Assembly (NCBI GenBank): GCA_015657535.1
Contig: JADHZB010001663.1
Location: forward strand, 30,091 to 94,090
DNA: 64,000 bases
Origin: Nephromyces sp. MM_2019
Taxonomy: Eukaryota; Apicomplexa; Aconoidasida; Nephromycida
Direction: 5' to 3'
Positions 2,700-61,734 of the stretch are shown piece by piece (the stretch's first letter is position 1; each line of letters opens with the position of its first letter). Below the pieces are notes generated by a model, which saw only the letters and a program-made list of their open reading frames with translations, made no database searches and had not been told where the DNA came from. Position numbers and translations under genes: made by a program.

Positions 2700-4113
2700 A
2701 GCGACTGGGTCTGCAGAAAATGTATGAAGAAGAAAAGCAGACACACCAAAAGATGGCGACTCCTACTGCGTGAATGTGAAGAGGGAAGTTATGAGGAAGA
2801 AGAGAAAGTATGCCGCGTTGAATGAAGTGAGTGGAGGCAGTTTGTCGCTTCCTGAAGCTACAGATGATGTGTGCGAAGTGCATATAAGGGAGGAGACCTC
2901 AGCTTTGTTATTACCAGTTTTTGGGTTAATGGGGGGGGGGAAGTGGGAAGAAGCTTCGCGCGGAGTATGGCGAGGGGGGAAGTGAGTATACACGGGTGAG
3001 TGGGGTTGTATCGGTAGCTGGCAGGCTTGTGTGTGTGAAGCTGTCGTGGGGAAGTGGTTTGGCATAGTATGTGTGTGTACGCTAGTGTGCGTGCATATTA
3101 GTATTATTGTAAGCGTATAGCAGTAGTGTGTGTGTGTAGTAAAACATGGACGAACAAGCCAGGATTTATTTCTATACATTCGTTTCAAGGCACCACTGCA
3201 AAGTTAGCAAATATTTTGCAGTTTACGCTACTTTGTGGAATTCTAGCACTTTTGAGGGGTAGCTAAACACAGCATAGATAACAAATACTCAGGAAGGCGT
3301 GTGTTAGCACGCATACATAGAATCGAGTTTTCAACACTCACACACAGAAAAATGCGATCACTCGGGTGTTATCTCAGCATCGTACCAGCTGCAGACACTC
3401 ATTGACGTTGATACTCGGGGTTTATCCTAAAGCTTAAGTGCACTGCTCACAAATTTCGTCACAAAGGTGCTACTCATCTCGTATCACACACACCTGCTAC
3501 TCATGCCATATCACACACACACCCTACTCCTGCCAAATCACACGCACACACATCTTACTAATCCAAATCACACGCACACACATCCTACTAATCCAGATAA
3601 CACACACAGCTCTTTGCTTATGTCATTTACTTGAAACTGCAAGGAAATAGAATTTTTCATCTCCACGCCTTCTCCAGCTTCTCCTTTAGACTTTCACTTG
3701 TTACTCTTTCTTTTTACTTGTTCATCATCTTTCACTTTCCCTCCTCGACTCCATCAAACTTCATTTGAAGAATTTTCAGCTGCCTAGTGTGTGTATCCCC
3801 TGCTTTGCTACTTACTTCCTCATTTCTAGCTTGTGTAATTTACTGCTTCCTTTACTTGAAGCTTCGAAAGAGTTTTAGGATTCCTCTAGGAGGCGCTGAA
3901 ATATCGTGTGATTTGCACACCATTATCGCTCCCTCCTCATCCATTTATCTCCTTTTTTTTGTTGATTTTTTGACCTTCCCTCTTTCCTCTTTCTTTTGAA
4001 GTTTTCACAGTTTTATTTTTAAGCTTCTTTTATTTGACGGAACCCTATTTTTCTTGTTACTTGGATATTTTTGGTATCTCTTTCATCATTTTTTTGAGAA
4101 TTGCTTTCCTCCG
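2700..4113. promoter_or_regulatory. Shared intergenic region between divergent RPL7 and V-ATPase c'' genes
   Basis: L7 runs left and V-ATPase c'' runs right, so these 1.4 kb must hold both promoters. I see a run of nine or ten G at 2932, several CA/TG stretches, a CA-rich minisatellite (listed separately) and a strongly T/C-rich tract from about 3660 to 4100 just before the V-ATPase start codon. The pyrimidine tract would suit a 5' UTR or a trans- or cis-spliced leader region, but I see no definite core promoter element. Short open frames here are CA-repeat translations. Confidence 0.5.
3477..3610. repeat. CA-rich minisatellite, about 30 bp unit, 4-5 degenerate copies
   Basis: Successive blocks read as ATCACACxCACACA followed by a CTACTxATxC spacer. 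The last two full copies (about 3535-3595) are nearly identical. Lies in the divergent promoter region. Confidence 0.7.
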
Positions 4114-7100
4114 ATGGCTGCATTACCGGTGGAAAACTGGACGGACCTGCTGCGCGCAATCAACCCCACCTATTGGGCAGCATTTGGTTTGGTATTCTCT
4201 CTGTGTGCGTCCACCATTGGAGCCGCATGGTTATTAGCTGGAGGGGGTGTGTGTATCATGTATTTGTATGTGTGCTTTTCAGATATTAATTTGAGTAGTT
4301 ATAAAGTTAGACTTTTTGGGGTGCAATTTTCTTTAAAAATTTTGTATTTTTCAGTTAAATTCTGCATCTAAGGCTTGTTTTGGTGAATTTTTGAGTCATT
4401 TTGTGAATCATAAACCTATTATGAGTAAAATTCTGCATCTAAGGCCTTATAGGTTATTCTTTTAATCATTTATAACAAAACTCTCGAAAGGTATGTCTTT
4501 TATTTTTGTAGTTCCCACGATAAATTGGTACTTTTATAGATTTGTGTGAAGACAGCGTCTTCAATAATCACTCAATCACTAGGACGCATTTATACTGATT
4601 TTACACAAAGTTGCTTTTTGTGTGTTGAATCGACTAATGCCTATCTTTTGAGGAAGATTTTGACTTCTAACTTGGTAAGGGCAATTCTTTTTACGTATTT
4701 GGCTGGTGCATGCCGTTTTCTAGTATATATTATTCAAGGTATTTATTTGGCATAGTATTTCCTTGTGTTTTCCCACACCCTTTCTTAGGGCGCATACTTC
4801 TGAATTACAAGGGCTTTTCATGCAAAGTTTTCAGCGCCAAAATTCGGCCCTTGAGGCGTCTGATGAGGTGGTCATGTGCACTCTTCACACTTTTTTGAAT
4901 TACATTTAATGTGTGAGGCTTACATAGACAAGCCTTTAACGTTGTTTTCATCCTTGAACACCACTCATAATCCTTCAATAGAAAGCCTAAAAAGTGAACC
5001 TTATACCCTAAACCCTACTGCCGTTCATCCCACACACACGTCTATCTTTGTTTGTAGGGGCATATTCATATGCGGTTCTTCAGTAATGGGGGCTTCCATT
5101 AAGTCCCCCAGAGTTCAGGGTAAGAATTTAGTCTCCATTCTCTTGTGTGAAGCCTCAGGAATCTTCGGATTCATCACGTCTTTCATTCTGCTAGGGAAGC
5201 TTGATGAGCTGGCTACTGCGCTTGCACAGACAGGAGGGCGACCTGTGCATGTTTATCCAAATGATGCAGTACTGTTAGGTTGGGTGATCTTCACTACCGG
5301 TATTACGGTTGGCTTATCTAACCTTGTTTCAGGGTAAAGGAAGGGGTGGTTGAAGAGGGGGAATTTTTGCCAGTGAGTGTTTCTTTTAATGCAGAAAATG
5401 GACTATTTCTCCTGCTAAAAAAACATGTCAAATGGTATAAAAGTGTGGCTTTGTGTGTGTTACGAACATTGTGTAGTATGTCTTATATGTCGTAACTTTT
5501 GGGCATTGCAAATGTGCGTGGTGTGGGTGACGTGTGTAGTGTGTGTGATGAGCACTTCATGATGTGTGTGGTGCATCCAGGAGGTGTTATTTAAGTCGTT
5601 AACATAAGCTGCATTATTTCTTAGGCATCGAAAGTTGCCAGTCGGATGGGTACACACGTAATGTCTGGCATGAATGTTCTCTTCAAGTGTACAAATGCCT
5701 GCTTTTTGCATACAACTTTTGCCGCTTCATTTTAGCACGTGTGTGCATCTTTTAAGCGCATTTGCTCAATTTTCGCTCGCCTTGTTTCCCTTGTTATCCG
5801 CCTTCAATGAGTATCTTCTAATTATAGACGAATGTCTTTGCTTTTTTGCTGTAGTCTCCCTCTCTTTTGAACTCACTCTACTCCTTTCGTACTCTTTCTA
5901 CAGTTTTGTACGTGCTATCGATGAGTGTGTGTGATTATGCGAATCAAGTGTGTTTTTTTTTTCTGACACCTCAGGGTAGCGGTTGGAATTACAGGTTCGA
6001 ATACTGTACTCAGTGATGCGCAGAGGCCAGAAACTTTTGTGAAGATGTTTATGGCAGAAATATTTGCTGGAGTGTTGGGTAAGATGTAAGGCTAGGATTA
6101 TCGTGTGTTACATTGCATATGTCAAATTATTCCGTGTGTGCAGCTATAATTTTTTTTTGGTACGCTGTGTGTTTGATTATTCCGTGTGTGCATGCTTATT
6201 CCTTTTGTGTTCTCATTTGCTGTATTTGCTTATCCGGTGAACCTTGCTTATTTCATGGGCGCGCTCCATTCAGTGTGTGCATAAGAAGATGTATACACTG
6301 ACTTTATGCGTTCGTGGGAGGGCGCATGATCCGCGTATACGCAAAGGAGTTCAAGAACGATGACATTCGCAGTTTAAGTGCTTTAATTAGTTCTATAGCA
6401 CTAACGGAAAAAGTATCAGCAACTAGCAGATTTTTACCCTCTTTTCAAAGCAGCATTATTGTATTGAAAAAGGAGTTCGAAATGCTCAGTTTGAAACCAG
6501 AAAGCAGAAAAATTATGACTTCATCTTGCTAAAAATAAGAGATAGAAAATAAAATTATATAAGTGATTAGTGTATCCGCCTGGAAGCATCCTAAAGGAAG
6601 CTGCCTTCGCAACTATTTTTATATTTTCTGATGCTTTCTAGTTGATATGAGAGCAAAAAGCTCTTCACTCTTTTAAATTGAAAAGCTGCTAAAACTTAGT
6701 GTGTAAACATACACACCGTGCGTGAGTACTCTTTTTTAACACAAATCTGTCCTGCCACAGTAGTATAAAACTTTTGAGAAACGGACTAGCGCTTTTGCCG
6801 GCTTACCGCTTCATCAATTCGCGTGTGTTTACACTCCACACGCTGCTTTTCCGGAAGACTAAGCGTGTGTGCGTGCGAGATCACTACTAAGTAGCATATG
6901 CTTGCTTGAACCAACACTTTGACGAGTATACACACATGTTTTGTTGCTCCAGCTTCACCTGCAATTTTATGATCTCCGCGGATGAGGTTTTATACATTGG
7001 ATACACGTTTTTGTTGCACACACGCTAGTGTATTTGTGAGTTCATTAAAAAGCACAATAAGACATTATTCTTTGAGCTTCTAGGCATAGCGCTAGTGAGA

Positions 7101-7546
7101 GGTTTGCTGAATGAGCTGCCTATACACTTCTGTGCAGTTGGATCTTATTGTTAGGAGTAATTTGTGAGCGATGGTTCCCTCGTGGCTCAAAATTTATGTT
7201 TTCCAATGCTTAGATTAGTTTGGATTTAGGACCTACTTACCCTGTACCTTTAAGATTTATTTTATTTGCAAAATTATACTTGTTTCTTGGAGTTTAGTTA
7301 AATTCCTCCACCGTGGTATGAGCCTTCATTGCTGTTTTATACGCATTTTACTTACAATTTTGATGAAGTTTCGGCGTTACCCCTAGAATGAGGGGTGCAT
7401 GTATTGGGAGGCGCTTATGTAGTGCACCAATACCAAGTATAGAGGAATTATGGAGTCAATTTTTTGCTTCTGTTGAACTACTGGCAGGTCTCTTTGGCTT
7501 CATTATCGGGATGCTTCAGTCTGCCATTTCTAGTGGTGCAACTTGA
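4114..7546 (+). CDS. VMA16: V-type proton ATPase proteolipid subunit c''
   Basis: Subunit of the membrane V0 rotor that carries protons across acidic-organelle or plasma membranes. Exons 4114-4229, 5058-5333, 5975-6078 and 7488-7546 join in phase to 184 residues, close to the usual length. The start MAALPVENW lies directly before the first hydrophobic helix. Key landmarks: GAAWGIFICGSS, SIKSPRVQGKNL, then LLCEASGIFGF with the membrane-buried carboxylate E70. A second carboxylate, E159, lies in MFMAEIFAG, followed by the last helix LFGFIIGMLQSA. E70 aligns with the family's essential proton-binding Glu. The first donor is GTTATT rather than GTAAGT. It is the only site that gives the conserved GAAWGIF junction, because reading on adds unconserved residues and breaks phase. 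Introns are 828, 641 and 1,409 bases, large for an 184-residue gene. Divergent from RPL7. Confidence 0.94.
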
Positions 7547-44306: not shown

Positions 44307-45068
44307 GTTAGCATAGAGGGTATTACTTTACACATGGGTAGGAGGGATAAACCAACGAAAACCAGCCCTCCAAAAGCTCAAAAAGAATAGGAATAGTCAG
44401 GGAACAGCATCCTGTAGGAATCTCCGAAAAATATCTAGCACAAGGATTGTACTAACCTGTGCTAGTGCAAAAAAAATCAGCAGAAAGCTCACCACCTGAG
44501 AAGAAATTTCGCACACACAGCAAGGAGCATGATTCTATTCAAAATTAAACGAAAGAATCATCCCATGAATATGCAGCGACGGGGATGCAAACACGCCAAA
44601 ATTTCATCTAGGGATTGCTCACACACATTGTAACGACATCATGATATTAAAATTAGACAGTAAATTTATTCAGAAATTGCACACACAAAAAACAAATTCA
44701 AGGCTACTAATGTACGTCAGAGTCAGAAGCACTTTTATAAAGCAGCGCGCACATAGAATAAAGAGCAGCGCCTGCATACCCTCAAGCAACAAGTAGTGAA
44801 TCGTCTAGTGTGATTTTGTGCTATTTCAAGTTTCAAAAAGCGTATGTGTGTGTGGGTGTGCGTGTGTGCTTTGCCAGTATCTGTTTTGGTGTGTGTATGT
44901 GTTTTTTGATGTGTGTTTCATGTGGATGCGTGTGCTTTGTTGTGTATGTGAACAAATTCTCCGTCACGCACTATCATATGACTGCACAAATACAATAAAT
45001 AGGCAATTGCACTTGTTTTTGCAGATAAGCTAGAAAAAGTCTTCAAGCAAACACACGCATACACATAC

Positions 45069-48000
45069 CCATAGAACTCTGCGCTTAGATTTATCGCTCT
45101 TCTGCTGCCTAGAAGAAAGCCTTTTATCGCATAAAAGCTGCTCTGATGAGCTTGGAAGTTGGCCTTTACCTAAGAAGATACGGAAGAAGCTGCAAAAGCT
45201 TACGAAACAATGCAGCCATGAGAGCAAAAGTAAGCTGATACATAAGCAAGCGCATAAACACATAAGAAGCAGATATACAGTTGAACAGGAGTCCAAACAT
45301 TAGGTAGCACTTAGGGTCAAAACAAAACTGGCTCATAAGCATACACAGGGGCAAACGTACATATATAGCAATCTACAGGGAAACTCAAACACGCAGGAGC
45401 ACACAGAAACACACGTACCGAGAGAAAAAAAATACACGCACACACACAGAAACACAAGAAAAAGTGCACAAGCACACCCCACACACACGAACCCACACAC
45501 ATAAAATGTCTACACACACTAGCACACACACCCAAAAAATTCGTAAAGACAGCACCACTGAGAAGTAAGGTTTTACCAGGACCTGGTAAGAAGCCTGTGG
45601 GGGGGTTTTCAATGTATCCTTCATCTTCTGCTTCCTCACCAAAAATCATACTTTTGAATAGAATTTCATCATTTTTGCTAAAACTCTCAATAAGAAGAAG
45701 AACTTCATTGCTTCCAGACTTTATCCTGATATAACACACGAAAAATCTGCCGAATAATACGCGATTCGCACATGATTAAACAAGGATTATTTAAGTGTAT
45801 GTGCGTGGAAAGCATTTTGAACCTTATAAGGATTAGTATAGAGAAAAGTATATGTGGAAAGCATGTGACACCTTATGAAGCTGAATTTAGAGAAGTACGT
45901 ACGTGGAAAGCGAACGCACACAATCAGGCTTCCAAAAAGGCTGCTATGCTACACTAGGACACACAAACCGCCACATATAATGCAATGCATCCGTACTATC
46001 ACCCAAATATTTCAGGATAATATCCTGTATTCACAGGGAGACACAATCATAGTTGCAATAACAGTTAGCCACACATACACACACCAATTACACACGCAGC
46101 TGTAGAAAAACACACAATCCCAATCGAAAACAAAAAAGCGAAAAAACCCAATTATACGCACACTCGATCAAATACACATCCAATAATATATAAACATAGA
46201 TGCAATTGTATAAACTCAAGCGCCCAAAAATACTCAATCACGCTCAACCATAAAATACTCACTAAATCAAACCCAACGATCTACACACACCTACTCCATT
46301 GCACCAAATCACACCCACACACTCGCCCACTTAATCAAACCTAGCCACACACACACACTCAATGACACCCACACGTACACACACACTCTAAAAGTACTAA
46401 AAATCCTAAAATGTACACAAATAAAATAGAATCTCGCAAGAAGCCAAGCAAATCGCAAATTTCACACTTTTCACTATGCTAGATATAATAAAAGTGTTTG
46501 ATGAAGGAGATTAACTCTCAAAGAGGCGAGCGAATATAAGTTGCTCATTCGCATGAAAGTATGCTGAAAATGCTAGCTTTAACACACAAGGAGAAGATTC
46601 ATCTTCTTTTCAAGAATAAAAAAATGGAGAAAAAGACAAATTCACCATCTATTTGGTAGCTTAATCCAACGCTGATATTCCTCCTCTTCTTTTTTTGGAG
46701 ATTCTCTTGGTATCTCAAGAAATGTATCTAAAAAAAAGAAACAAAACTGAGTGCTTTTAAGCGCTCTAAACTTCTTTAACACTAGAAAGCCGGGGCCAGG
46801 CATAAACAGTTGTACGTACACACACACTACACTAAAAAAACCACAAGAAAAGTACAGCAACCATGAAACGGACAGAAAAACACCCAAAAACCACGCCAAA
46901 AAAAACACACACAAGCAACCACAAAACACACGGCAAAATACACACAAAAGCCCCCACATATTAAGGAAACCCTGCGAACTTACCAAGCTTATGATAATTC
47001 AAGAAAATCGAAACTAGTATAGGTTTCCTAGCAGAAAAAGATGACCAAGAGGAGGAAAATTCATCAAGTTTAAGGGAATTCTTGAAGAATGATGAGAAAG
47101 TTAGAGAGTAGCGAGAAAAGCAGGGAAAAGGCAGGAAAGTAGATTTTTCACCTCCTCCTGCTCCTCCCTTATAGAAAACATCATCAGATCCGCAAAAAAC
47201 CCCCAGATCATAGTAATGTCTATACCTGCAAACGAAAAAGAAGCTCATTCTTAGTAGTTTCTACCTCGAAGCTAAAAATTGAGGTATAGCAAGCCTCAAC
47301 GAAGAATGCTAAAGAAAAACCAGTGAAAAACACGGCGTTACACCAGATTTGCTACATCTTAATAACAAAAAACACACAAAATAGACATGCGCAGTACACA
47401 CAAAAAACATACATACACACACACAAGCGCACACAGAAAAAAAAACAGAACAAAAGCACTCAAGCATCATTACCAGGTCCTGAAAGATACCTTATTGACA
47501 TCTTCTTCATCTGCATAACCTACTCTTTGAAGATTCTTGGCATGATTCCCAATGCTTGGTGTATTGAAGTCCGGAGATGAGTGTACGTACACCGGAGGAA
47601 TCACATTATTTGGCGTGTATATAGATGATGCAATGCTCGATGAAGATGAGAAGACTGTAGATGTAATCCCATGCTCCGTGAGCTGCGTGAAATCTGCAAA
47701 ACAGTAAGAATTAAAAAAAAATAAGCAAAAAGTGTGTGTGTGTGAAAATTGTTGAAATGAGTTATTATAACGCCATGTAAATGCTTTCAAACGCTCAGTT
47801 CAAAGTGCGTGTGTTGAGCTTCAGAGAAAAATTTTTTTTCTCTGAAGAGGCTATGAATATAAAGCCTTGAAGATGGTAGCTCCAGCCTATACTTTTCACA
47901 AGCACGCACACATGAACTCTACACACTTAAAGCAAGTAGATGGGAGTAAACACCCATGCATATTCACCTGCATTCGCTCAGACACGTCCTTAAAAGCAAG

Positions 48001-51000
48001 AAATCATGAAATTATCACACACAGCTGTATGACCCACGTGCTTACCGCAATACTAGTCATAAAACTGATAGTTTGATTGGGCTGCGCACACGTGCATCCA
48101 AACACACATAGAGCCATGCGCAGCGAAATAAACACGGATATACAGTCAAACACACACGCGAACGCAGCCAAAAACGAGCATATATAACCAAACACACGAA
48201 TATGCATCCCGAACATACAAATAACTTGCAGATCCACACACACAACTACACCTACACACATGCAAATACCCATAAACACGGCGACAGATTCTGCCCCCCA
48301 CACACACTCATATTCCCCCAGAGTCAGCGACGAAACTATAGCTTCACAGTCCCCCAATCTTCACACTCACCATATATCCTCCATGAGCACACGAATTTCC
48401 ACACACAAAACTAATTTAGAAATTATAGAGCTTTATTTTATTGTCTATTAAAGTTCAAAAACCTGCACAAACACACCCAGCACACACTCGTAACCTCTAC
48501 ACACACATACCCTCCATACATACAATTTGAGCGCACGCACTTTCCACACACATACGAATTCTTCACACACAGCCTCCGCACACGTTTAACCTTCACACAC
48601 ACCCACCACACACACAATCCACACACGCTTACAATTCTCTGCGTTTCCCAAGGGTTGAGCTGCAGTATGAATCCAGAACTTCTCCAAGGGTAACGATCCC
48701 AACACCGCATAGTTTCTGCTTATAACATAGAGTGGACGAAGATTCTGCGTGTTCGCTGCTTCACTGAGAACATCAGCAAAGTTAATGAGAAGATCTATTT
48801 CAAGAGGGTTAGCTACGTTCCACTCTTTCATAAGACTTATAGGTAAAATTCGCTGTCTAAGCTTTCCAAGAAGAAGGAAAGAGAGTTTTTTGTAGGCTAA
48901 GAGAGATTTTGGCAGCTTTAAGTATATCGAACATTGTGAAGAGGCGCTTAAATGGCCTTGAAATTGAGTGTGTGTACGAAGCTCTGAAGTAGTATGAGTA
49001 AGAGGGAGCTTGGAGGTAGGGAGAGGCTGCTTATCATAAGAAGAAGAAGAAGAAGTTGAGTAAGGTGGTTTAACGTGAAGTAGATGTGGAGTCTCTTGAA
49101 TAGGTGAATCTGGAGAAGATGAAGAAGTAGAAGGAGCAAAATTTGATGAAGAAGAAGGCGAAAAAAAAGCAGAAGAAGAAGAAGAAGAAGAAGTTGAAGG
49201 AGAGGATTCCGACGAAGAAAAACAAGAGGAAAACGAAGGGAAACACGAGGAAAAAGATTCCAACGAAGGAGAAGAAGGAGCTTCAACTAAAGCTACATCT
49301 AATGCAGGATCCACCAAAAAATTGCATGTAGAAGGACTTATTGAAGAGGAAGTAACGCCTGAGAAACTAGGAGTAGAATCCACCAAAGCAATAGAAGCAA
49401 CATCAGAATTACTAGAAGCCCTTCTATGCGTGCTGATTGCCGTTTTTTTTCCACACTTTGAGTTCAAAACTGTGTGTGCGTATTGAATTCCGGGCTTGAT
49501 ATCGCCAGGAGCGCTACCATATGCATCAAAGTACCAGTCTGAAGCATTCTCAACCCTAAAAGCTCCATCGCCATAGCCTGAAAACCCCAAGAAACGAGGA
49601 AAAGCCCTCTTATTCTTGGGAAAAGTTGATGAAACTTCATCTCTCTCCATTAACAGCCCTCTGTCACCCTTTGAGGCGGAGATATCAACGGGAAGAAGGA
49701 GTGGGGCCACTCTATTTCTAGCAAAATCTTCAATTACCAGCTTCTGTGGTGCCCTAAGCTCTCCATCTTCTTTTAGTGAGTAATCTTCAACCATTTGGGT
49801 GTGAGGATGCGTTGAATAAGCTTCCTCTCTACTCGTTTCACTCAAAATTTTGCCGTCAAAAACTAGCCTGAAGATCTTCAAAATCCTCATTTTCAATGTT
49901 TTTCTCGTATAATCAAAGGAATCCCCTTCAGGAGATACTATCAACCCCCCCACTACCTCCAGCGTTTTTCTAAGCTTCGCAGCGAACTTCTGCACACCCT
50001 TCAATAGAGAGAGAATTACCGGATGCTGATGTATCGTGAGAAGCCTTATCTCCCTCTTTTTCAAGCTTTCCAGCAGCAAAAAAAAGCTATCAAAACCCCT
50101 CCTTCTTAGTTTCTCACTTCTCAAAGCACCGAAGCCTCCTCCAGATGCTGAAAAATCAGGAACAAAAACATGATTTTCACCTGCTTCTTCATCGTCTCTA
50201 CTAGTTGTTTTTCTAGCAAATGCATCAGTATCTTTTGCAGTATGAGCACCATACACACAGCTCAAGAAGCTATCGTTAAAGGTTTGAGGAAGACGAAAAA
50301 ATTGAAGAAAAAAGTTGCTATCCTCTGCAAAAGGAAGAGATTCTCTCTTCGAATGAAGGTTAGTGTAGGCTGCATCTGATGGGAGGAGGAGATCACACAC
50401 ACTTGTAATACGGGTTGAAGATGCTGAGCCCGCCGTGCTCATAGTAGCGTACTTGCACATTAGTTGGATGAGAAGCCTCCAAACTTTTTCTTCACTGAGC
50501 AACTTATCGTTAGGTACAAGAGAGGAAGCACATATATATACTCTTAATAGGGTGAGATCCTTCCCACACTCATTCATGAGGTGTGCAGGTACACAAGAGC
50601 CTGAAGGAGATGACAGCGACATTGAAGAGATGAGGTGTGGGAGAAGAGTGTGTGTGTGCGCATTGACGCGATTTCTAAGTCCTGGTGGAAGCAGTGAGAT
50701 TAGCAGGGAATTGAGAGAAGAGCCTAAATCTGGTGGTAGTTCCTCTGGTCGGGGATGAATCTTGTGTTGTGTGTGTGTTGCAAGCTGTCTCGAGGAACTT
50801 GCTTGGCCCGGTGGATGATGAATCCCATCTTGTGTGTGCATTTCAAGAGGCCTGGAGTAGCTGTGTGTTGCTGAATGTATTGAGCTAGCATTGCTATATA
50901 GTAACAAGCAATAACGCCTCAGCTGCAGCAAAAGGGGAAGAGCATACTGCCAAATATTTCGGAAGCAATTTGCACGGTGTGTGAGCCTGTGAGAGTGTGT

Positions 51001-54000
51001 GTACGAGAGGCAGTGATGCTCATCTCCAGCTGATACGTTCTCATCAACAGCTGTAACAGCACCTTTTGAATCGCCAGAAACTCTCTGTACTGCATGCTCA
51101 GTGTAAGCCTGAGAAAGCTGAGGGAAGCGTTTAGAGCTTTTAGGAAAATCTGCGAATGCATTGGATTCTTCCTCATTGTTTTGCATATCTTTCGCTACAC
51201 CTAAGAAGCAGTCTCCATATGCATGCTTAGAAGCCTTTTCTTCTTCTTTCCAATCAGGTTGCTTGCTTTCTCTCCAAACATCTTCTTGCTCATCTCTCAA
51301 AACGTATGTATCCACTTTAGCTACTTCTTTGTCATTTCTCCAGTCGTCTTCATCGTCTTCATCACCACCGCCTCCTATCTCACCTCCCCAAGTGTGTGTA
51401 TTCCCTTCGCTTCCTCCCCCACAACCGCTTCCCTCCTCATCTCTCAAATCGTCTTCATCATTCTCTTCATCCAGAAAACCAACGTCAAAAGTAGTAAATT
51501 CCATCAAATCAGCGAAATCTTCATCCAGAAAAGTCGCCAGTTTCGCTACTGAGAAACGCGTGGTGAGCTCTAACATCCCAGAATCCTCTGAAGAAGTAGG
51601 AATCAATTTCTTCTTCATAGAAAACATCATTTTCCCACTTTTATCTACATTAGAAGAAAAAAGACTAGGCTCAATCTTCGCCCGATTAAAGCTTGTAGAA
51701 TTGAAAAAAGAGGAAGGTTTTTCCTCTTCAACGAAAGCAGCTACTCCCTCCTCCACACTCTTTTTCCATGCATTTCGTCTTTCTTTGAGGTTTTTTTTTG
51801 CCTTCAGTCTGTCATTCTTCTTCCTGCTCATACCACCTCCTTCCACTCCCCTTTTATTCATTATCTTCTTATTTCCATCCTCCGAAACAACTTCATTCAT
51901 CAGCTTTGATGAATCTACAAAGCAAATCGCATGCTCTAGAGTTCCCACTTCTTCTTCTTCTGTAGAAGAATCTGCATTAGAGGGAGAAAGAGACTGTATG
52001 AATGCGCGTATATCCTTCAAAGCGTTGAAATCTAGGGAGTCTACGTTAAGCGAATACCTGAGGGGAAAGAATTACGAGGACTGGCGGGGGGTGAGTGGGG
52101 GAGTGAGTGAGGGGGGTAGCAGTAAGCCGGTGAGTGGAGGGGTGAGTGGAGGGGGTAGCAGTTAGAGAAATAACGCCGAAGAAATTCAAAGGGAAAGAGC
52201 GAAAACTCAATAAGAGTGACTTTAGGGGTGATGGCCTTTTGAGGGGAGGAGTAAGGGAGTGGTTTCACGATTGTGGGCGGGGTTAGAGTAGTCAGGCTGA
52301 TACGAAGGGTGTTGGTATGGCATTTACAGGTGAGGGGGTTAAGGGGGAAGGTTTGAGGTGTCAGTTATTCGAGGCGAACCATTAAACACAAAATAAGAGG
52401 CAGTTGGGAAGGTTTTATCTCCTTACAGAAGACTGATGCTTGTGTGTGTTATTCTAAACGAGATATTTGCAGTAGAGTCACACACTCACCACACACACGA
52501 ATACACCCACACACAGACAGATATATACACACATAAGAACACACGCACACACTCATACACGCATACACACCCATACACATACAAAAATAGCAAGAAGCGT
52601 GAAATTCGCTTGTAAATACTTCTGACTGTGTTGTGAATGCATACTTGCATCCTTAGGCTTATCACGCGGAATAAGCATGCACACACACATACCAAAAAGG
52701 ATCCTGCTGCGTTGAAGCTTGGAAATTTCCTGAGTAGCCTGAATCATCGCCAAAAAAGTAAAATTCATCGTTTTCTGCTTGATTCGTAGTCAAATTCCCT
52801 GCAGAATGCACGAAATTTGAAGAAGAAGAAGAAGAAGAGGGAAATGCCGTACTTTCGCAGTAAATTGGCAGATCCCTAAGGAGAAACGTTTTTGCCTGCA
52901 TTAAAGCACAAAAAGCTGCTGTTTCTACTGTGGAGAAAGGTAGAAAATATTTGCAAAACTATGGAATCGATAAAGCCTCTTCAAGGACATGTGCATGTGT
53001 GTGTGTTGCTTTGATATTTAGAAGAAATCTACTAGCATTTCAAGTGAAGTAGGTAGAACAGGTATAGAGGCACGAAAGAAAGAGCAGAAATCGAGGAAAG
53101 TTTTGCTGTGAAACGACAGAAAACGGTGTTTTTGTAGACAAAAAATATACCCGAGAAAAATAGCGATAAGGGAACACACACACAAAAATATAGAGCATGA
53201 CAGAGGAACACATGCCATATATAGTACGAGATAGACACAAAAAAATCTACACACACATAATAGGATACATAAGCCCACACGCACGCACACACAAATCAAC
53301 ACAAACACCCGCAAATATACACACACACACATACTACTGCTCTTCAACACCCCAGTATATCCCAAGAAAACAGCTTCTCGCTACAGGGCGCAAACATCAG
53401 CCAACAACCTCGCTTTAATCCTCATACTAGCAAACACCAGAAAAGCTACCTGAAGACCCGGTAGTAGAGCTCTTCCACCATGCTGAAGCCAAGAAGATAA
53501 CAGACACAAGGCATTTTCTTTCTGGTGCTTCACATCTTCATCAGATGAGGAACTAAGCAAGTCATGAAGATTCCTAAAAAAAAGGATTTTATCGTAATTT
53601 TTAGGCAAATTCGGAGGAAACAAAAGAATTTTTCCCTCCTCTTCAATCAGCAGACTTTCATCCATCTTCAAGCTTGAAATCTCGTCGATTTTCTCGATTT
53701 TCCTGGTAAAAAAAGGAATGTGGATCGCTATTTGTGAATAGAACAGACTGTCGAATAAGCAATAGTGTGAAGCAGGCTGTATGTACACTCGTTTATGCAG
53801 CGATTTTCAGAGAAAAAAGAGAGGAAAAACTATGTTTAGGGGGAATTTTAGGCTTGAAAAGCAGCAGTGTTGGCCAGAGTGGAGAGAAGGCCAAACAAGA
53901 AAAATTTTGCAGAGGGAAGCGTACGACACACACATAGAAGCAAAATGAAGAACACGAAGATATACTAGGAAGGGTAAACACGCAGGGTGAAAAACATTGA

Positions 54001-57000
54001 AGATATACTGGGATGCGATAACACACATACATACACACACACACACATACTTGAGTAAGCTTTTGTATAACAACTAGAAAGATGAAATGATGACAGAAAA
54101 AGTTTACCAGGGAAAGATCGCCTTTATTGCTACTTTGGTAAAATCAGCGGAGATCTTCTCTTCTTGCGCAGCAACTTCTTCACGAGGGAAGGAAGAAGAG
54201 GGAGAAGAAGAGGGAGAAGAAGAGGGAGAAGAAGAGGGAGCAGAAGAGGGAGAAGAAGAGGGAGAAGAAGAGGGAGAAGAAGAGGGAGCAGAAGAGGGAG
54301 AAGAAAAGGGAGAAGAAGAGGGAGAAGAAGAGGGAGAAGAAGAGGGAGAAGAAGAGGGAGAAGAAGAGGGAGAAGAAGAGGGAGAAGAACATGAAAAAGT
54401 GCTGAAGATAACGTTGAAGCTCTCATCCGTTATGATTCCGCAGCTGCGAATAGATAGCATCCACGCACAACAAAAGGAAAAAAACGTCTGAATTAGTTGA
54501 TATAACGAGAGAGAAGGCTACTTGCCTTCAGTTTGTGCACACACACTCACCAGCTTAGCGGTAGATAAACAATACATGCACACATACAAACTCTTAAGCA
54601 AGCATATCTACGCGGTACAAACAAGTTTACACACATGATTATGCACACATCAGAAAGGAAAACATGAAGAACATCCCAACACACTCCCAAAAGAAAACAC
54701 ACAGGCAAAACAAATACACAAACATACAAACAAAACAATAAAAACACCCAGGAAACAATGGCATATACACAGACACACAGGCAAAATTAGTAGCGTGCAC
54801 ACACACGCTTGTAAAATCAACGCACACACACTCACCGACATAAAAGCAATAGTGTACACAAGCTCAAAATCCCAACAGTTTGCACTCACAAGAAGAGTGC
54901 ACAGCTAAGCAAAAATAACTCGCGCACACACATGTATACACACAAGCAAGCATACGCTTCGAAAACTCTTCAGTGCAGACAGCAGTAGAAACGACTATTC
55001 TTCTTTACAAGGAAAGAACAGTAGTGTACGTACACTGCAGGGATAAAGAGGTGTTTTTCTCCGGCCAAAACTTCAAAAGAAACACCTAAAAAAAAGGCAA
55101 GCATATAAAAGTGTGTGTCTTTGGTTTTGTGTGTGTGTATGCATGTGGCTTTCACGAGTATATATGAGGGTGTTAAATTCTCGGCTTACCTGATGAGTTA
55201 AGAAAAAATTTCGCCCGGCAGCGATGGTAATACATCAAACCGTAGAATCCATTGAAATCATTTATTTGGGAATTCAAAGAGTAGAACATCTAAGAAAAAA
55301 ACAAATGGAAGCCTGTATGTGTTTGTGTGCAGGTGTGTGTGTGGGAGCGTAGGTGTGTGTGTTGTGGTAGTTCAACCCAGGGGAGCATCTAGAATTACCT
55401 CTAAAGTGGAAATTATCATAAGCTTGCTTTCCTTCAAATAAATGTGTGTGAGTAGTTTTTCACCGGGAAAGCTACTTAGGCACATAAAAAGTTCACGCAC
55501 AGTATGAATCACACAGTTACACACATCAAAACACAGCAAAACATACACCAGTACACACATTTATACATATCAATGCACACACCAACACACACGAACACAC
55601 CAACACACATGAACACACCAACACACACGAACACACCAACACACATGAACACACCAACATGCAAACAGGAAAAATACACAACCCCACCCATAGAGGCATA
55701 TAAGCTTGTAGAAACTCACACACACACACACACCATTATAATCAAGGAATGAAAATACCAAGTTTTCCTCACATTTGAAATTCCATTCCTTCTTGTTCTA
55801 TTCACAGACGAAGGCATTTCACCACACAAAAATGAAGATGAAAAGGGAGAATCCTGAAAATTCACGATATCTATACTTAGACCATCCAGCGGATCTACTG
55901 CAAAAGGAAAGATTCCGCATTCCTGTGTGTGAAAAAGAAAAAGAAGAGGAGTCAAAAGAAAAAGAAGATGAGTCAGAAGAAGAGGAAGAGGAGTCAGAAG
56001 AAGAGGAAGAGGAAGAAGAAGAGGGAGAAAAAGAGGAAGAAGAGGAAGAAGGAAAAGAAGCAGAGGAAGCACAAGAGCAACTAGAAGAAGAGGAAAAATC
56101 AAAATTAACAGCAAAAAAAATCAAAAAATCACCTTTTGAAGGAAATATCTGCCAAAGAAAATACTCAATTTCTCTTCCAATATTGAAGATCGCATCATCG
56201 GAAGCTCTAAAAGACGGAATCCCCAACTGTTATGAGGATGCAAGCAACTTTTTTCTGCATCTTCTTCTAAATGCCTCAAGAACTTTAGCATCTTCACAAT
56301 AGGCTGAAGAAGGGGGGATGTGGAGGGGTGTGGTGTGTGGTATACGGCGTTTAGTATGTGGTTTCTGGTATGTGGTGTGTGCGTTGTTTCCACTTAAGCA
56401 TCATATCATTCAGTGAAGAGCTCTATCTATATGAATATTGTATGACCAAAGAGCACATTAAAATAGGAAGCTGCACACATAAGTCATATAATGAAAACCG
56501 CAAACACACACACCTGAAACCTCAAATCTCTCTCTAAATCTTCTTCAAGCATCAAACTTCTCCCTTTAAAAGAAGATTCCATCGCTCCATCATCAGCAGC
56601 CTTCAGTACATCCTCCACGCTGTCTGATTGAGAAGAGAAGCTCAAGAACTACAGCAGTCTCTTAGGTAATGTCTAATATAGAAATAGCACACAGCGACGT
56701 ATATAAGCCACATTGAAATCTGGTAGAGATAGCAACATAAAAGCACACACAAGCAATGGCACACACAAGCAATAGCACACATAAAAATACGCATTTATAC
56801 ACGACACAAACACAGGGAATATGAACACACAGAATCACATGAAAATTCGTATTTAATGGTGCATATATGCATTCAAACACACACACATACCCGTGTATTC
56901 AAGCGCGCAGATACACGTATGTTGAAAAAAAAAACGCACACACATTCATCAGCACAAAAATACATGAATCAACCTACAAACAGATGCACTCGGACACCCA

Positions 57001-60000
57001 TATAGATGTGAAAAAAACACACACAGACATGCATCCACACACATACGCACATGCATTTAAGCGCATGAACATGCACACAAACACACACATACAAAAGCTT
57101 GCCGGAATCGCTCATAAATGCATCTAATACACACAGGAACAAAATTTAGCATAGATTTTCGCACACAGACAAAAAGCAAACATACACACACGCTAATGAT
57201 ACCGCATCAGTTGACAACTTAAGGCTTACTTGAAGAGAAGTAGATGAGGGAGTTGATAAGCCTTCTTCCATTAAGAATAGAGTTCAATACATTCAGAGAT
57301 ATCTTCTTCAGGGCTAAAATGCTGAAATCATCGAATGAAGATGCAGGGCTTTCAAGAGTTTTTAGCCGCTTCTCTGCTTTTATATCAAAAGAAGAGGAAG
57401 GGATTCCGTAAGGGGGGAAAAGACGCGGAAAAGAGGCTTTCCAAGCATCTTCTACAAGAGAAAAATATGGGAGGGAGGGGCGCGTGTGTGAAGGCACACA
57501 CAAGTATAACATAGAGCGATCAAAAATAGAGTACCGTGAAGAACTAGAAGAGGGGGGCTTGTAAGTGAAATTCACATACACGCTACCGCAGTGTGTGTGC
57601 TGTGAGTTAAAGAGACAGAAACACACACATATTTGTATCGAGGGCATCAAGCAATTACACTCACCGCGATTTAAGATAACTACAAACACCCACAAGAATA
57701 GACACTATCAAGGAATCATGCTTGCCGTGACTTGAAGTTAACATACATACACATACCAAAGTTGAAAGTCTTTTCATTCAAATTATAGTAGACATTGGAG
57801 GATTCCTTCGTCGAATCTCCAGAAGAGTCAGATGCTGAAACCTCCCTCCTCTTCCACTTCTCCACCTTCGGCGAAAGCTTCTTTGTCTTCATTGAAGAGG
57901 GGAGAAAATCGCCTGCTTGCCAGCCGAAACAGCTGATAATACGTAGCAAACTTTGCCTGGGCAAAAACCCTAAAAACAGGGTTTCTATCCATAAGAAGTA
58001 TCTTTGATGTTCCACTAAGAAATGCTCTTCTTCCATGAAAAAAATGGGAGATTTTCCATGCAACCTACAACCCACTTCATCTTCAAGAGGAGTGTACGTA
58101 AACTGAGGAAACAGCAGCTCAGAAGCAGAAGAAGAAGCTGTATCGTTCTCATTTAGAGCGTGTGTGTGTGAAGCTTTGGAAGAAAAGTGGGGGAGGTTTC
58201 TGTTGGCAAAATCGTTGACCTCATAAGAGAGGGAGGTTGGGGAAGAGGGGGGAATTTGGGAAGAAGGGGGGTTTGGAGAAGAGGCAGAAATCGATGAGGA
58301 GGAAGAAGAAAAGCCTAATGATTCACTAGGAATAACCAACTCAGTCACATCAGCTGCTCTGCTAGGGGAAAAATCAACATCTTCAAGCCCTGCATATTCA
58401 ATGTAAGTCAAAGCAGAGAAGAAGCGTAACACACAAAGAAAAGCCTCCCACAGCAGTCTTAGAGATGTAGCGATAAAGATGCTGCAGCTCGAAGATGTTA
58501 TAGCCGATGAAAACGACATACTGAAGCTTTGGAAGTCATTATTCCCTCCAGTATCTCCCATACACATGGAGGGGGGTGGAACATAGGATGCCTGCGCCGG
58601 AGACACACATCCAAGCGGCTCATGATCGAGGATAGTGAGCATATCCCTTAATTCAGCATTATAATCGTCGAAACCCCCCATCTCCCCTTCTCGTGTTACA
58701 CCCCCATTTTGACCCTCCAACGAATTGCCGAAACCTCCGCCCACCCCTTCCCTAGCCCAACCCCCCCCAGCCTCAAATAAACTATCCACACCTACCCTCA
58801 ACCCTTCGCTAACCCGATCCCTCCCCCCACCCTCCAGCAAACCAGCCACACCCAAGCCTACCCTTTCTCTTACCCGACCCCCCCTTCCACCCTCAAAAAA
58901 ATCACCCACACCCCCCCCCGCTTCCCAATGAGAGTGATCTAAACGAAGCAGATTCTTTGCGCGTTCATCGTAAGGGGTGTGAAGATTAGGAAGGCTGGAG
59001 GGTTGAAGATGAGGCTCGTGTGATGAGCAAGAAGAAATTTTGTGGTTATCTACCCTCAGGGGGGGTGGAGGGGGGGTGAGGTAGGGGTACCGGGGTGGAG
59101 AAGGTTCCTCATCAAGGACGGAAGATTGAACCAAACCATGCGTCTTTGGTGGATAAGTGATGGGTGCTATTTCAAAAGGCTTTGCCTTGATATGCTTCAA
59201 AAGCTTAGAACGCTCATAGAAGGGGTTGCATCCGCAAGGCTCAAGCTGAGCAGCAATGATAGGGCCTCCATAGTCGATTAGCTGCCCTTGTATTAACCCT
59301 ATCAAAGTGCGAAACCACTCGCTTACTGTGTGTGTGTAAGCTTCATTGGAGGTATCCCTCATCTGTTATATAGGGGAGTATTTTTTGGGGGGGTTTGAAG
59401 AGCTTTGTGTGTATGCGTATGTGTGTGTCATTACTAGAAGTTTGAAAAAGCAGCAGAGTTTCATTCTGTGCTCTAGAAGCTTCAATAGAGTATGATAACT
59501 ACTACTTTCCCGGCCAAAAGCCTTAAGAAGTCAAGGATACTACTGCTACTCTTGAGCTTCTTCACAACACACAATATTCAAGAGAGAAATTAGCTAGGCA
59601 ACACACAACTGCGAGGAAACACTGCGCCCTGAAGACAATTGTCTTTAGGTCCAAAACCCCCATGTACCTCCATCCCCACCTCCTCCACCAACCCCCCTCT
59701 CAGCCCCTCAACGAAACTCATCACCCCCATGCCCCCCCCACCTACCCCACACGCACACTTACCCTAAGACCTTCAACCAGCCAAAGCCAATCAGGCATCC
59801 CTATCAAGCCTTTATCACTACATATTGAAGGACCTACGTGTGCGACTCCATAAAGCCCCTCCTCTTTGAGTAGCTCACAGAAGCTTATCAGTTTTTTAAG
59901 GCTTTTGAAGTCGATTAAACCAGGCAGCCTCTCAAGCTCTGCCCAGTAGATGGGGAAGTTAACTGAGCGAATCTCATCTTCTTTAAGCATCTGGAAGAGC

Positions 60001-61734
60001 CTTCTCCACCTTGAGGAATCTGACACGCACACACACACGGCTAAAATCTTGTAGGATTAAGCGGAAATTTTTATGTGTGGCAGGTCGTCAAAAGGAAGAA
60101 AAAGGGATGAGAAAGGGGGGGCACACATGCACACTGAGGGACAGATGAGTGGTACCCGGGCAGAGGAATAGCAGATAAGAGGAATAGCACACACAGAAGC
60201 ACACACGCACAGAAGCATATACGAGAAACAACAGACGATGAATAGCAGACGCTAGAAATAAAACGCACAGAAGTGCGCACACACAAAATAACACAAAAAA
60301 AAATAAGACACACACGAAAGCACAGAAACACAAAATAACATACACGAAAGCCAATAAAGACGCACAAAAGCACGCGCACACACAAGCATACAGAGAGGCG
60401 CCTACACAAGTATATGGAGGAATGACGATGCCATCAGAGCTAGCACACTGTACATTCAGACGAGAATCAATAAAGCTGTATATACACTCAGAGGTAAGGA
60501 TTGACGCACTCGCGCTCATATGAAAGCATCATGTTATGTTCCTTAAATTTAGGGGCTAATCAAGTTTTACTTGTAAGTTGAACCATTGAAGTAATCGCAA
60601 TAGCTGAAGCAAAAACTAAGTATTAAAGGCAAGCATCTGGGTGGGTATGGATGTGTATGTGCTATGGCGTGTGTGTGTGGGTATGCGTGGGTATATGTGG
60701 ATGTGTGTGTGTTAGAGTTTGTGTGCCTATGGGTATGCGTGGGTATGTGTGGATGTGTGTTGGTGTGTTTGGCTGTGTGTGGGTTTATCAGCAAACATCT
60801 ATGTGCGTATGCCTAAATACATATGAGTGTGTGGGGGTGTGAAAAAGTGCGTGTGCAAGGCTTTGTAAGCTTATATCTATGCAGGCCCCTGTGTGCGTAA
60901 GCGCACACATGCTGGCAGCCTTCCAGCTTCGCTTACCGACATTCCAAAAATCTATTGATGCCGATAAGAGAAGCGATGAATCTTCATGAGCTCCACCTAA
61001 AGGCAAAGGCAGCTATAGTAGAAAGTGGACTAACACACACAGGAACATGTACACAAACAGGCAGACTCGCAAAAAGACAGATACATAGATAAGCACACAC
61101 ACAGATACGCAGACACATAGCCGAAGCCACAACGGCGCTTAAAAATACCTGCCTTAAAGTGCTGCAGTGTACTTGTAAGAAAGTTATAAGTATTCGCCTG
61201 AACTATTCAAAGCTGTCAAAACACACACCCTCAAACATCACAGCACACACATAAAACAGCATTACAGCGCAAGCAAACACGAAAACACGCACACAAATAC
61301 AACACACATCCAGGCACCACGATACACAAATAAGCACCACAACACACGAACACAACAACACCCAAGCATCACAACGCAAGCACCACAACACACACAAATA
61401 CCATAACACACACACAGCACTAACCATTGCTTCTGTTTATATTCCATTCTTCATTCCTTGCATGGTGAGCTGCTTCATTTAGCAAATCACTCTCACTTGT
61501 ATTCTCAAGCTTATACAATGCATGTGAGATGCTGTGTGCTGTATTCTCGAGTGTACATACACTAGAAATAAGAAAAAAAAACACACACAGTGTGTGTAGC
61601 GATTTACTAGCATTGTGTGTGACTAGGTAGGGCATCATAGAGATTAAAAGAGATGCTGTATGCCTCAGAGGTATGAGGAAGGGAAGCAGATAACACACAT
61701 AAGCAAGAAGCTGTTCTTTGGCGTGAATCATCAT
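45069..61734 (-). CDS. Giant GH35 beta-galactosidase-like protein, probably catalytically inactive
   Basis: Glycoside hydrolase family 35 relative. Exons: 61734-61425, 61202-61149, 60996-60937, 60019-59763, 59362-57757, 57451-57230, 56623-56514, 56303-56133, 55922-55773, 55431-55399, 55289-55190, 55085-55034, 54443-54108, 53702-53450, 52895-52693, 52057-48633, 47693-47474, 47225-46984, 46727-46646, 45725-45577, 45169-45069. All phases agree; sum 2,712 codons, against about 650-850 in the family. The N-terminus has hydrophobic stretches (signal peptide or anchor). Barrel landmarks are SASIDFWNVDSSRWRRLFQML, YGVAHVGPSICSDK, GMPDWLW and YGGPIIAAQLEPCGC. The jelly-roll is GFYGLMYYHR and GVSFEVLAGEKHLFIPAV. 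The C-terminal motif is YQRWIKLPNRW|IKSGSNEVLLLIE. The acid/base Glu of ENEYG is Cys here. Weakest parts are the start codon, the exon ends at 55034 and 55399-55431, and the true 3' end, because the last exon listed ends in a donor. Confidence 0.75.
47581..47592. other. Palindrome GTGTACGTACAC, copy 1 of 3
   Basis: A perfect 12-base palindrome in the coding sequence of the GH35-like gene (codes VYVH). Identical copies lie at 55024-55035 and 62414-62425. One-base variants are at 44192-44203, 58092-58103 and 61551-61562. Confidence 0.6.
48633..52057 (-). other. Single 3.4-kb exon of the GH35-like gene, mostly family-unrelated insertion
   Basis: Open for 1,141 codons between a CCCCTCAG acceptor (upstream exon supplies the first two bases of a Trp codon) and a donor at 48632. 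The exon begins YSLNVDSLDFNALKDIRAF. It carries an acidic/Ser block, a Lys/Arg-rich patch (SRKKNDRLKAKKNLKERR), Asp/Glu tracts, an unusual QYALPLLLQLRRYCLLLYS hydrophobic stretch, and an 80-residue Ser/Pro/Phe run (about 49290-49050). It ends with a compact, globular-looking segment (KLPKSLLAYKKLSFLLLGKL to LPLEKFWIHTAAQPL). The last segment is probably where the GH35 jelly-roll fold resumes. On the plus strand a 334-codon frame (51161-52165) mirrors the acidic part and is a shadow. Confidence 0.7.
54189..54389. repeat. 12-bp array GGAGAAGAAGAG, about 16 copies
   Basis: Near-perfect tandem array with three units carrying GCA for GAA and one carrying AAA. On the minus strand it reads Ser/Pro repeats (SSPS) in frame with the GH35 exon 54443-54108. 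It could alternatively be a pyrimidine-rich intron removed with the donor and acceptor near its edges. On the plus strand it is an uninterrupted Glu/Gly frame, which I regard as a shadow. Confidence 0.9.
55024..55035. other. Palindrome GTGTACGTACAC, copy 2 of 3
   Basis: Overlaps the inferred donor (GT|GTACGT) of GH35 exon 55085-55034. Same 12-mer as at 47581. Confidence 0.6.
55581..55658. repeat. 18-bp CA-rich minisatellite, four copies alternating two variants
   Basis: The unit ACCAACACACACGAACAC alternates with a copy carrying CATG for CACG, so the higher-order unit is 36 bp, repeated twice. Lies within an intron of the GH35-like gene. Confidence 0.85.
55923..56132 (-). other. Strongly polypyrimidine intron of the GH35-like gene
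   Basis: The donor AAG|GTGATT at 56132 and the acceptor CACACACAG at 55923 bound 210 bases. Except for its first 40 bases the intron is almost purely C/T in the sense direction. Removing it links two phase-0 exons (FFGRYFLQK to ECGIFPFAVDP). The opposite strand reads as a 175-codon Glu-rich frame that has no independent support. Confidence 0.65.

What the first reader, a model, noticed from the sequence alone, without database searches (positions are those of the whole stretch)
45069..61734. A GH35 beta-galactosidase relative expanded to at least 2,712 residues
The fold landmarks of GH35 occur in the right order on one strand across 16.7 kb: barrel N-terminus, GGPIIAAQ strand, jelly-roll GFYGLMYY and VSFEVLAG, IFPW, and the C-terminal RW..P..W plus SGSNEVLLLIE. 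They are joined by exons that are all in phase. The insertions more than triple the usual length. I know of no GH35 protein with this architecture.
Basis: partly seen in the sequence, partly recalled or inferred. Interest (0 to 1): 0.85.

Follow-up and report, generated by a model that had tools for sequence, protein, structure and literature searches.

The report
Expanded GH35-like gene, catalytic glutamate lost
A gene of an apicomplexan (the parasite phylum of Toxoplasma) descends from sugar-cutting beta-galactosidases but looks swollen with extra sequence and lacks a residue thought to be needed for cutting, so it may bind sugars or proteins rather than digest them.

Summary
A GH35-derived gene is real on the minus strand. 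Exons 60009-59763 and 59362 onward, joined at a GTAAGT donor, hit Pfam PF01301 with 82 bits, E 7.6e-23. About 13 kb downstream a two-exon C-terminal GH35 motif (QRWIKLPNRW / IKSGSNEVLLLIE) scores 47.2 against at most 17.2 in 5,312 control pairs, with an intron at the same place and phase as in a homologue. One gene of 2,712 residues is possible but unproven; two open frames (549 and 1,161 aa) lie far beyond shuffles.

Two homologues in the same assembly (contigs C158, C820) also lost it, differently, while keeping the nucleophile motif; 15 of 16 reference GH35 rows keep it. A V-ATPase gene in the window places the organism in Apicomplexa; two word-based protein searches returned no apicomplexan GH35. 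Best reading: an insertion-rich pseudoenzyme branch related to plant-type GH35, perhaps a galactoside-binding protein.

The parts
59763..60009 (-). Exon coding the first part of the GH35 barrel (WRRLFQMLKEDEIRSVNFPIYWAELERLPGLIDF...GPSICSDKGLIGMPDWLWLVEGLR), donor GTAAGT; true 5' edge uncertain by some bases
   Evidence: PF01301 45.8 bits for the open frame, 42.5 bits in the six-frame scan; edges from spliced alignment, donor read
57757..59362 (-). Exon (part of a 549-aa open frame) that starts MRDTSNEAY, carries GGPIIAAQLEPCGC (lost acid/base Glu), then about 480 residues with Gly/Ser/Pro-rich stretches and no detected homology; 3' edge at a possible GTATGT donor
   Evidence: Joined to the previous exon: PF01301 82 bits, profile 23-147; 549 aa against a shuffle maximum of 264; same edges in one of two spliced alignments
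48589..52071 (-). 1,161-aa open frame between the barrel and the C-terminal motif; no Pfam match; membership in the same gene is inferred from position and strand only
   Evidence: Shuffle maximum 193 aa in 200 shuffles; 0 Pfam families at E up to 1; single-sequence AlphaFold mean pLDDT 35.9, uninformative
46646..46681 (-). End of the penultimate GH35 exon, EYQRWIKLPNRW, phase-2 donor inside the Trp codon (TG|GTGAAT)
   Evidence: QRWIKLPNRW ranked 1st of 2,151 ORFs for its block; splice sites read; joint test
45535..45725 (-). Next exon, IKSGSNEVLLLIESFSKND..., acceptor CAG|G; same intron position and phase as C158 (W|LKIGSNVVIILEE); 3' edge a guess
   Evidence: alone only 13th of 2,151 ORFs; C158 sequence
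60409..60528 (-). Tentative N-terminal GH35 exon (...IYSFIDSRLNVQCASSDGIVIPPYT)
   Evidence: Aligned by MAFFT to the C820 and C158 N-termini; did not show among the top rows of the N-terminal block scans
54107..54517 (-). Tentative exon with a Ser/Pro-rich 12-base repeat array (repeat at 54192-54389, 16.5 copies)
   Evidence: Open frame, repeat; no homology
45033..45299 (-). Tentative C-terminal hydrophobic stretch followed by a basic tail, possible membrane anchor
   Evidence: Hydropathy maximum 2.87 over 19 residues; a stretch after the C158 GH35 end has the same value

Best explanation
The locus is a multi-exon apicomplexan gene of GH35 descent, related to plant-type beta-galactosidases, enlarged by low-complexity coding insertions and by introns. 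Its protein has probably lost hydrolysis: the asparagine and the acid/base glutamate of the ENE signature are replaced (Pro and Cys here). Shown: GH35 homology at both ends, absence of the NE pair here and in two homologues, very long open frames. Inferred: one transcript joins both ends; the protein is secreted or membrane-bound; the altered barrel with its beta-domains now serves to bind (a galactoside, a glycoprotein or another protein), in the manner of alpha-Klotho in GH1 or of the inactive elastin-binding splice form of human beta-galactosidase.
For: PF01301 E 7.6e-23 for the joined exons. C-terminal two-exon motif 47.2 against a control maximum of 17.2 in 5,312 pairs, same intron phase as C158. 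Acid/base Glu: 15 of 16 reference rows keep it, 0 of 3 loci here; nucleophile Glu kept in 14 of 16 references and in C158 and C820. Pocket Glu of CAEW: Glu in 14 of 16 references and Asp in 2; here Gln in C158, Arg in C820, Asp in the window. C158 matches the galactose-binding domain PF21467 at E 1.1e-5, just under its cut-off (25.9 against 27.3 bits). In the lenient of two settings a C-terminal profile scored 85.0 in the target against a maximum of 71.0 in 13 controls. Named best hits of the V-ATPase c'' gene are Toxoplasma and Eimeria at 50-52%.
Against: No GH35 signal was found between about residue 128 of the barrel fragment and the last 25 residues, so the second half of the barrel, the nucleophile and the beta-domains of the window gene are not located. 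In the stricter setting the C-terminal profile scored 37.1 (controls up to 39.9), and the barrel's second half was within controls in both settings (71.4 against 75.9; 45.5 against 53.5). PF21467 gave no match in the genome exon by exon; PF17834 gave none either, but its control genomes gave none, so that says little. Pfam finds nothing in the C-terminal fragment alone. The window's Asp in the CAEW place also occurs in 2 of 16 references. C158 and C820 keep the nucleophile, which an idle site need not. There is no expression evidence, and binding is analogy only.
Confidence: 0.5

Rival explanations
1. Two or three genes: a barrel-bearing gene at about 60.5-57.2 kb, a separate gene around the 1,161-aa frame, and a C-terminal GH35 remnant or another GH35-like gene at 46.7-45.3 kb.
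For: No homology links the middle to GH35; the 1,161-aa frame has no Pfam match; no transcript data.
Against: The two GH35 ends lie in the right order on one strand; in C158 the same two ends lie about 4.7 kb apart in what reads as one gene; C820 spreads its GH35 exons over 7.2 kb.
Confidence: 0.22
2. An active glycosidase or transglycosylase that uses another residue as acid/base, for example a Glu or Asp supplied by one of the insertions.
For: The nucleophile motif WIE(A/N)W is kept in C158 and C820; unalignable sequence begins right after the lost motif in the window gene.
Against: Three loci lack NE in three different ways and the CAEW pocket Glu is changed in all three, though only to Asp in the window, which looks like relaxed constraint on the pocket.
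Confidence: 0.15
3. A decaying pseudogene.
For: Very long branch in the tree (3.57); active-site loss; conserved middle not found.
Against: Open frames of 549 and 1,161 aa against shuffle maxima of 264 and 193; a homologous GT-AG junction intact at the C-terminus; two homologues lack the same residue pair.
Confidence: 0.1

Closest known systems
Plant-type GH35 beta-galactosidases (tomato beta-galactosidase, PDB 3w5f/6ik6; Camellia P0125)
   Same: Barrel N-terminal half aligns up to GGPII; C-terminal QRW..P.SWLK..N motif; the homologue C158 aligns with them over much of its length, including PWS and NYSWY/DYLWY motifs of the beta-domains; best hit of the profile search.
   Different: No NE pair at the acid/base place; large unalignable stretches in the window gene.
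alpha-Klotho (GH1 pseudoglycosidase; passages seen in PMC8302672)
   Same: A membrane protein with glycosidase-fold domains whose catalytic glutamates are substituted (N239 and S872 in human, as that paper states) and which acts as a co-receptor.
   Different: Another GH family; no sequence link was tested; function here is unknown.
Elastin-binding protein, inactive splice variant of human beta-galactosidase (passage seen in PMC2397404)
   Same: A GH35-derived protein without enzyme activity that works as chaperone and cell-surface receptor (that it is GH35 is recalled).
   Different: Arises by alternative splicing, not by substitution of the catalytic residue in the gene.

Membership tests
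GH35 (sequence family) | Significant match to the GH35 profile PF01301 | tested here: met
   82 bits, cut-off 27, E 7.6e-23, profile 23-147 of 319
GH35 (sequence family) | C-terminal beta-domain end (RW..P..W(L/I)K..N) | tested here: met
   Joint score 47.2, control maximum 17.2 in 5,312 pairs
GH35 (sequence family) | Second half of barrel and jelly-roll domains (PF17834, PF21467, block motifs) | tested here: inconclusive
   Not found in the window (one search had no working control); C158 reaches E 1.1e-5 for PF21467, under its cut-off
Active GH35 beta-galactosidase | Acid/base Glu with preceding Asn (ENE) | tested here: not met
   QLEPCG in the window; 15 of 16 references have NE
Active GH35 beta-galactosidase | Nucleophile Glu (WTE.W) | tested here: inconclusive
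   Not located in the window; present in C158 and C820 and in 14 of 16 references
Active GH35 beta-galactosidase | Hydrolysis of beta-galactosides | not testable with these tools
   Needs expressed protein
Plant-type (BGAL) subgroup of GH35 | Grouping with plant sequences in a tree | tested here: inconclusive
   The three loci group together, not inside the plant group; long branches, fork 80/87

The most novel reading that the evidence does not exclude
Some apicomplexans carry a family of catalytically dead, plant-type GH35 proteins anchored in or secreted to the cell surface, in which the galactosidase fold was turned into a galactoside or glycan receptor, and one paralogue was blown up to well over 2,000 residues by insertions.
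Probability: 0.3. Interest if true: 0.65.

Novelty: new variant of a known kind. Interest (0 to 1): 0.45.

Why it matters
Two protein searches returned no apicomplexan GH35 protein (both need shared five-residue words and have a length limit), and the literature listings seen showed none. A GH35 pseudoenzyme family there would be a new case of a glycosidase fold turned to another task and a candidate for how these organisms meet host or own glycans. It would also show how far low-complexity insertions can stretch an old fold.

Tried and rejected
Rejected: reading GFYGLMYY, VSFEVLAG and IFPW as jelly-roll strands (for the animal/bacterial-type blocks; for plant-type ones). Rejected: my own by-eye remapping of the middle to C820 (GFY = GYYC, FEVLAG = WIEAW, QHGGRAL = SQGGSII, FNALKDIRAF = YGHLKELHRA): the best ordered chain in the target scored 58.0 with 9 of 43 controls as high or higher, and my by-eye choice scored below that. 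Weak support for one item of it: the intron after the GFY/GYYC motif is phase 1 in all three loci. Uninformative: the single-sequence AlphaFold model of the 1,161-aa frame. Led nowhere: Rfam scan of the window (0 matches); PF17834 and PF21467 in the genome; the TSA prefixes of the best V-ATPase hits in PMC6733595 (0 occurrences); a search for a paper on the tomato enzyme's mutant. The spliced aligner finds GH35 exons in C820 but not in the middle of the window gene.
Full report
What was checked. The window lies in a 48.3-Mb assembly of 1,127 contigs (C859:30091-94090). A six-frame search with PF01301 gave three places: the window exon (42.5 bits, over the cut-off), C158 (25.1 bits) and C820 (24.5 bits), the last two below the cut-off as single exons.

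The organism. The V-ATPase c'' gene on the + strand of the window (about 4,100-7,540, exons joined by me) has its best hits at 51-54% identity in transcriptome records with prefixes GHVS and GHVT, then Toxoplasma gondii and Eimeria species at 50-52% (the best 120 of 245 hits were listed). So the contig is apicomplexan, with no close relative in that database. The fetched, readable part of C158 is 30.5% GC, that of C820 43.9%, the window 41.4%. Alpha-tubulin open frames that look near-identical by eye lie in loci of 30.3% and 43.5% GC (L009, L016). I infer, tentatively, that the assembly holds two related organisms and that C820 and the window belong to one of them. CACACA density does not sort cleanly: it is 8.1-11.6 per kb in the window exon locus and C820 loci and 0.4-0.65 in three C158 loci, but 4.8 in a fourth C158 locus (L008) and 0.31 in L016.

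The observation. Exons 60009-59763 and 59362 onward join at AGG|GTAAGT and CACAG|ATG (the acceptor from the frames). The join matches PF01301 at 82 bits, E 7.6e-23. Its best solved relatives are tomato beta-galactosidase chains, and the two alignments printed stop at QIE(N)/QLE(P), just before the missing acid/base place. The C-terminal exons EYQRWIKLPNRW and IKSGSNEVLLLIE are split by a phase-2 intron inside the Trp codon. C158 has the same split, NIPISW|LKIGSNVVIILEE. Scoring TG|GT(A/G) donors with AG|G acceptors that could give such a split within 1,500 bases, the window pair reaches 47.2 while the best of 5,312 pairs from nine control stretches reaches 17.2. C158 is one of the four reference rows of that test, the other three being plants. 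Singly, QRWIKLPNRW ranked 1st and IKSGSNEVLLLIE 13th of 2,151 ORFs. These two ends are GH35.

The middle. Between them I could not find GH35. An HMM of five GH35 sequences finds the first exon (43.7 bits), the second weakly (5.6 bits), and nothing else above the best control ORF (1.6 bits). Plant-type block HMMs put no middle landmark on top; block matrices neither, in the part of that output that was not cut. A chain of four barrel blocks scored 58.0, with 9 of 43 controls as high or higher. Control stretches overlap one another. Spliced alignment of the barrel's second half was within the 13 controls in both settings; the C-terminal profile beat all 13 in the lenient setting (85.0 against 71.0) but not in the strict one (37.1 against 39.9), and the lenient path ends in IKSGSNEVLLLIE. 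The two long frames, 1,161 and 549 aa, exceed the maxima of 200 shuffles each (193 and 264), so the stretch is very likely coding, but whether it belongs to the same transcript is inferred.

The homologues. C158 yields a multi-exon GH35 of plant type that aligns over much of its length with plant enzymes, with PF01301 at E 4.8e-27, PF21467 at E 1.1e-5, just under its cut-off, and a hydrophobic stretch after the GH35 end (hydropathy 2.87; the join to it is my reading of a GT-AG pair). C820 gives PF01301 E 2.9e-23 over profile positions 4-315. A tree of the barrel N-terminal half groups C158 with C820 (94/86) and the window with both (80/87), on long branches that may attract each other. A search of the own genome with the window gene's exons found 8 places, all on C859; with C158 it found 19 places: 16 on C158, 2 on C820 (E 2.2e-4 and 0.004) and 1 in the window gene (E 0.05).

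The active site. In an alignment with 16 reference rows (P0001-P0004, P0125-P0135 and tomato), the acid/base column is Glu in 15 of 16 (not P0004) and the nucleophile in 14 of 16 (not P0004, P0135). The window has QLEPCG, C158 QLDSNF and C820 QFDHST, so NE is absent in 3 of 3; C158 (WIENW) and C820 (WIEAW) keep the nucleophile; the window's is not located. The CAEW Glu is Glu in 14 and Asp in 2 references; here Asp, Gln and Arg. That these columns are the catalytic acid/base and nucleophile is recalled knowledge of GH35; it fits that PDB chains 6ik6 and 6eon, printed beside 3w5f and 3d3a, have Ala there. Three different replacements at three loci are hard to explain as sequencing errors.

Mechanism. 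The most likely course is loss of hydrolysis with the fold kept for binding. Precedents, from passages only: alpha-Klotho, whose glycosidase domains lost catalytic glutamates and which acts as a co-receptor (PMC8302672), and the inactive beta-galactosidase splice form that works as elastin-binding protein (PMC2397404). Binding, ligand and membrane anchoring of the window protein are inference.

Novelty. Protein searches with C158 (4 hits among 6,731 candidates) and with the three-row alignment (11 hits among 7,992 scored candidates) returned named plant proteins and unnamed ones, none named as apicomplexan. These searches need shared five-residue words and a limited length range, so distant apicomplexan relatives may be missed. 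Literature searches for GH35 or pseudoenzyme glycoside hydrolases with apicomplexans gave 0 papers. Looser ones listed 20 of 74 papers and 5 of 2,153; no apicomplexan GH35 shows in those listings, and none's five contains the word GH35.

Verdict. The finding is real at both ends, overstated in the middle, and more interesting for what it lacks than for its length.

Noticed in passing
window 4100-7543 (+): V-ATPase proteolipid subunit c'' gene, about 184 codons spread over several exons in 3.4 kb; best hits are apicomplexan at 50-54% identity.
   Followed up: yes
G000 contigs C158, C210, C925 (loci L002, L009, L016): The assembly may hold two related organisms: loci of about 30% and of about 41-46% GC, with alpha-tubulin frames that look near-identical in both kinds; CACACA density does not sort them cleanly.
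   Followed up: partly
L004 and L005 (C158): A long plant-type GH35-like gene on an AT-rich contig, acid/base Glu replaced by Asn, nucleophile kept, hydrophobic stretch after the C-terminus; a replication-helicase-like (MCM) open frame lies downstream, named by eye only.
   Followed up: partly
L006 and L007 (C820): A GH35-like gene whose acid/base Glu is lost and nucleophile motif AWIEAWTG kept; Ser-rich open frames and wide gaps between conserved exons.
   Followed up: partly
P0004 (protein database hit): An unnamed GH35-domain protein that lacks both catalytic glutamates (QNESAW, VTSFES): another possible GH35 pseudoenzyme.
   Followed up: no
window 54192-54389: Twelve-base repeat array, 16.5 copies, coding for Ser/Pro on the minus strand and Glu/Gly on the plus strand.
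   Followed up: no
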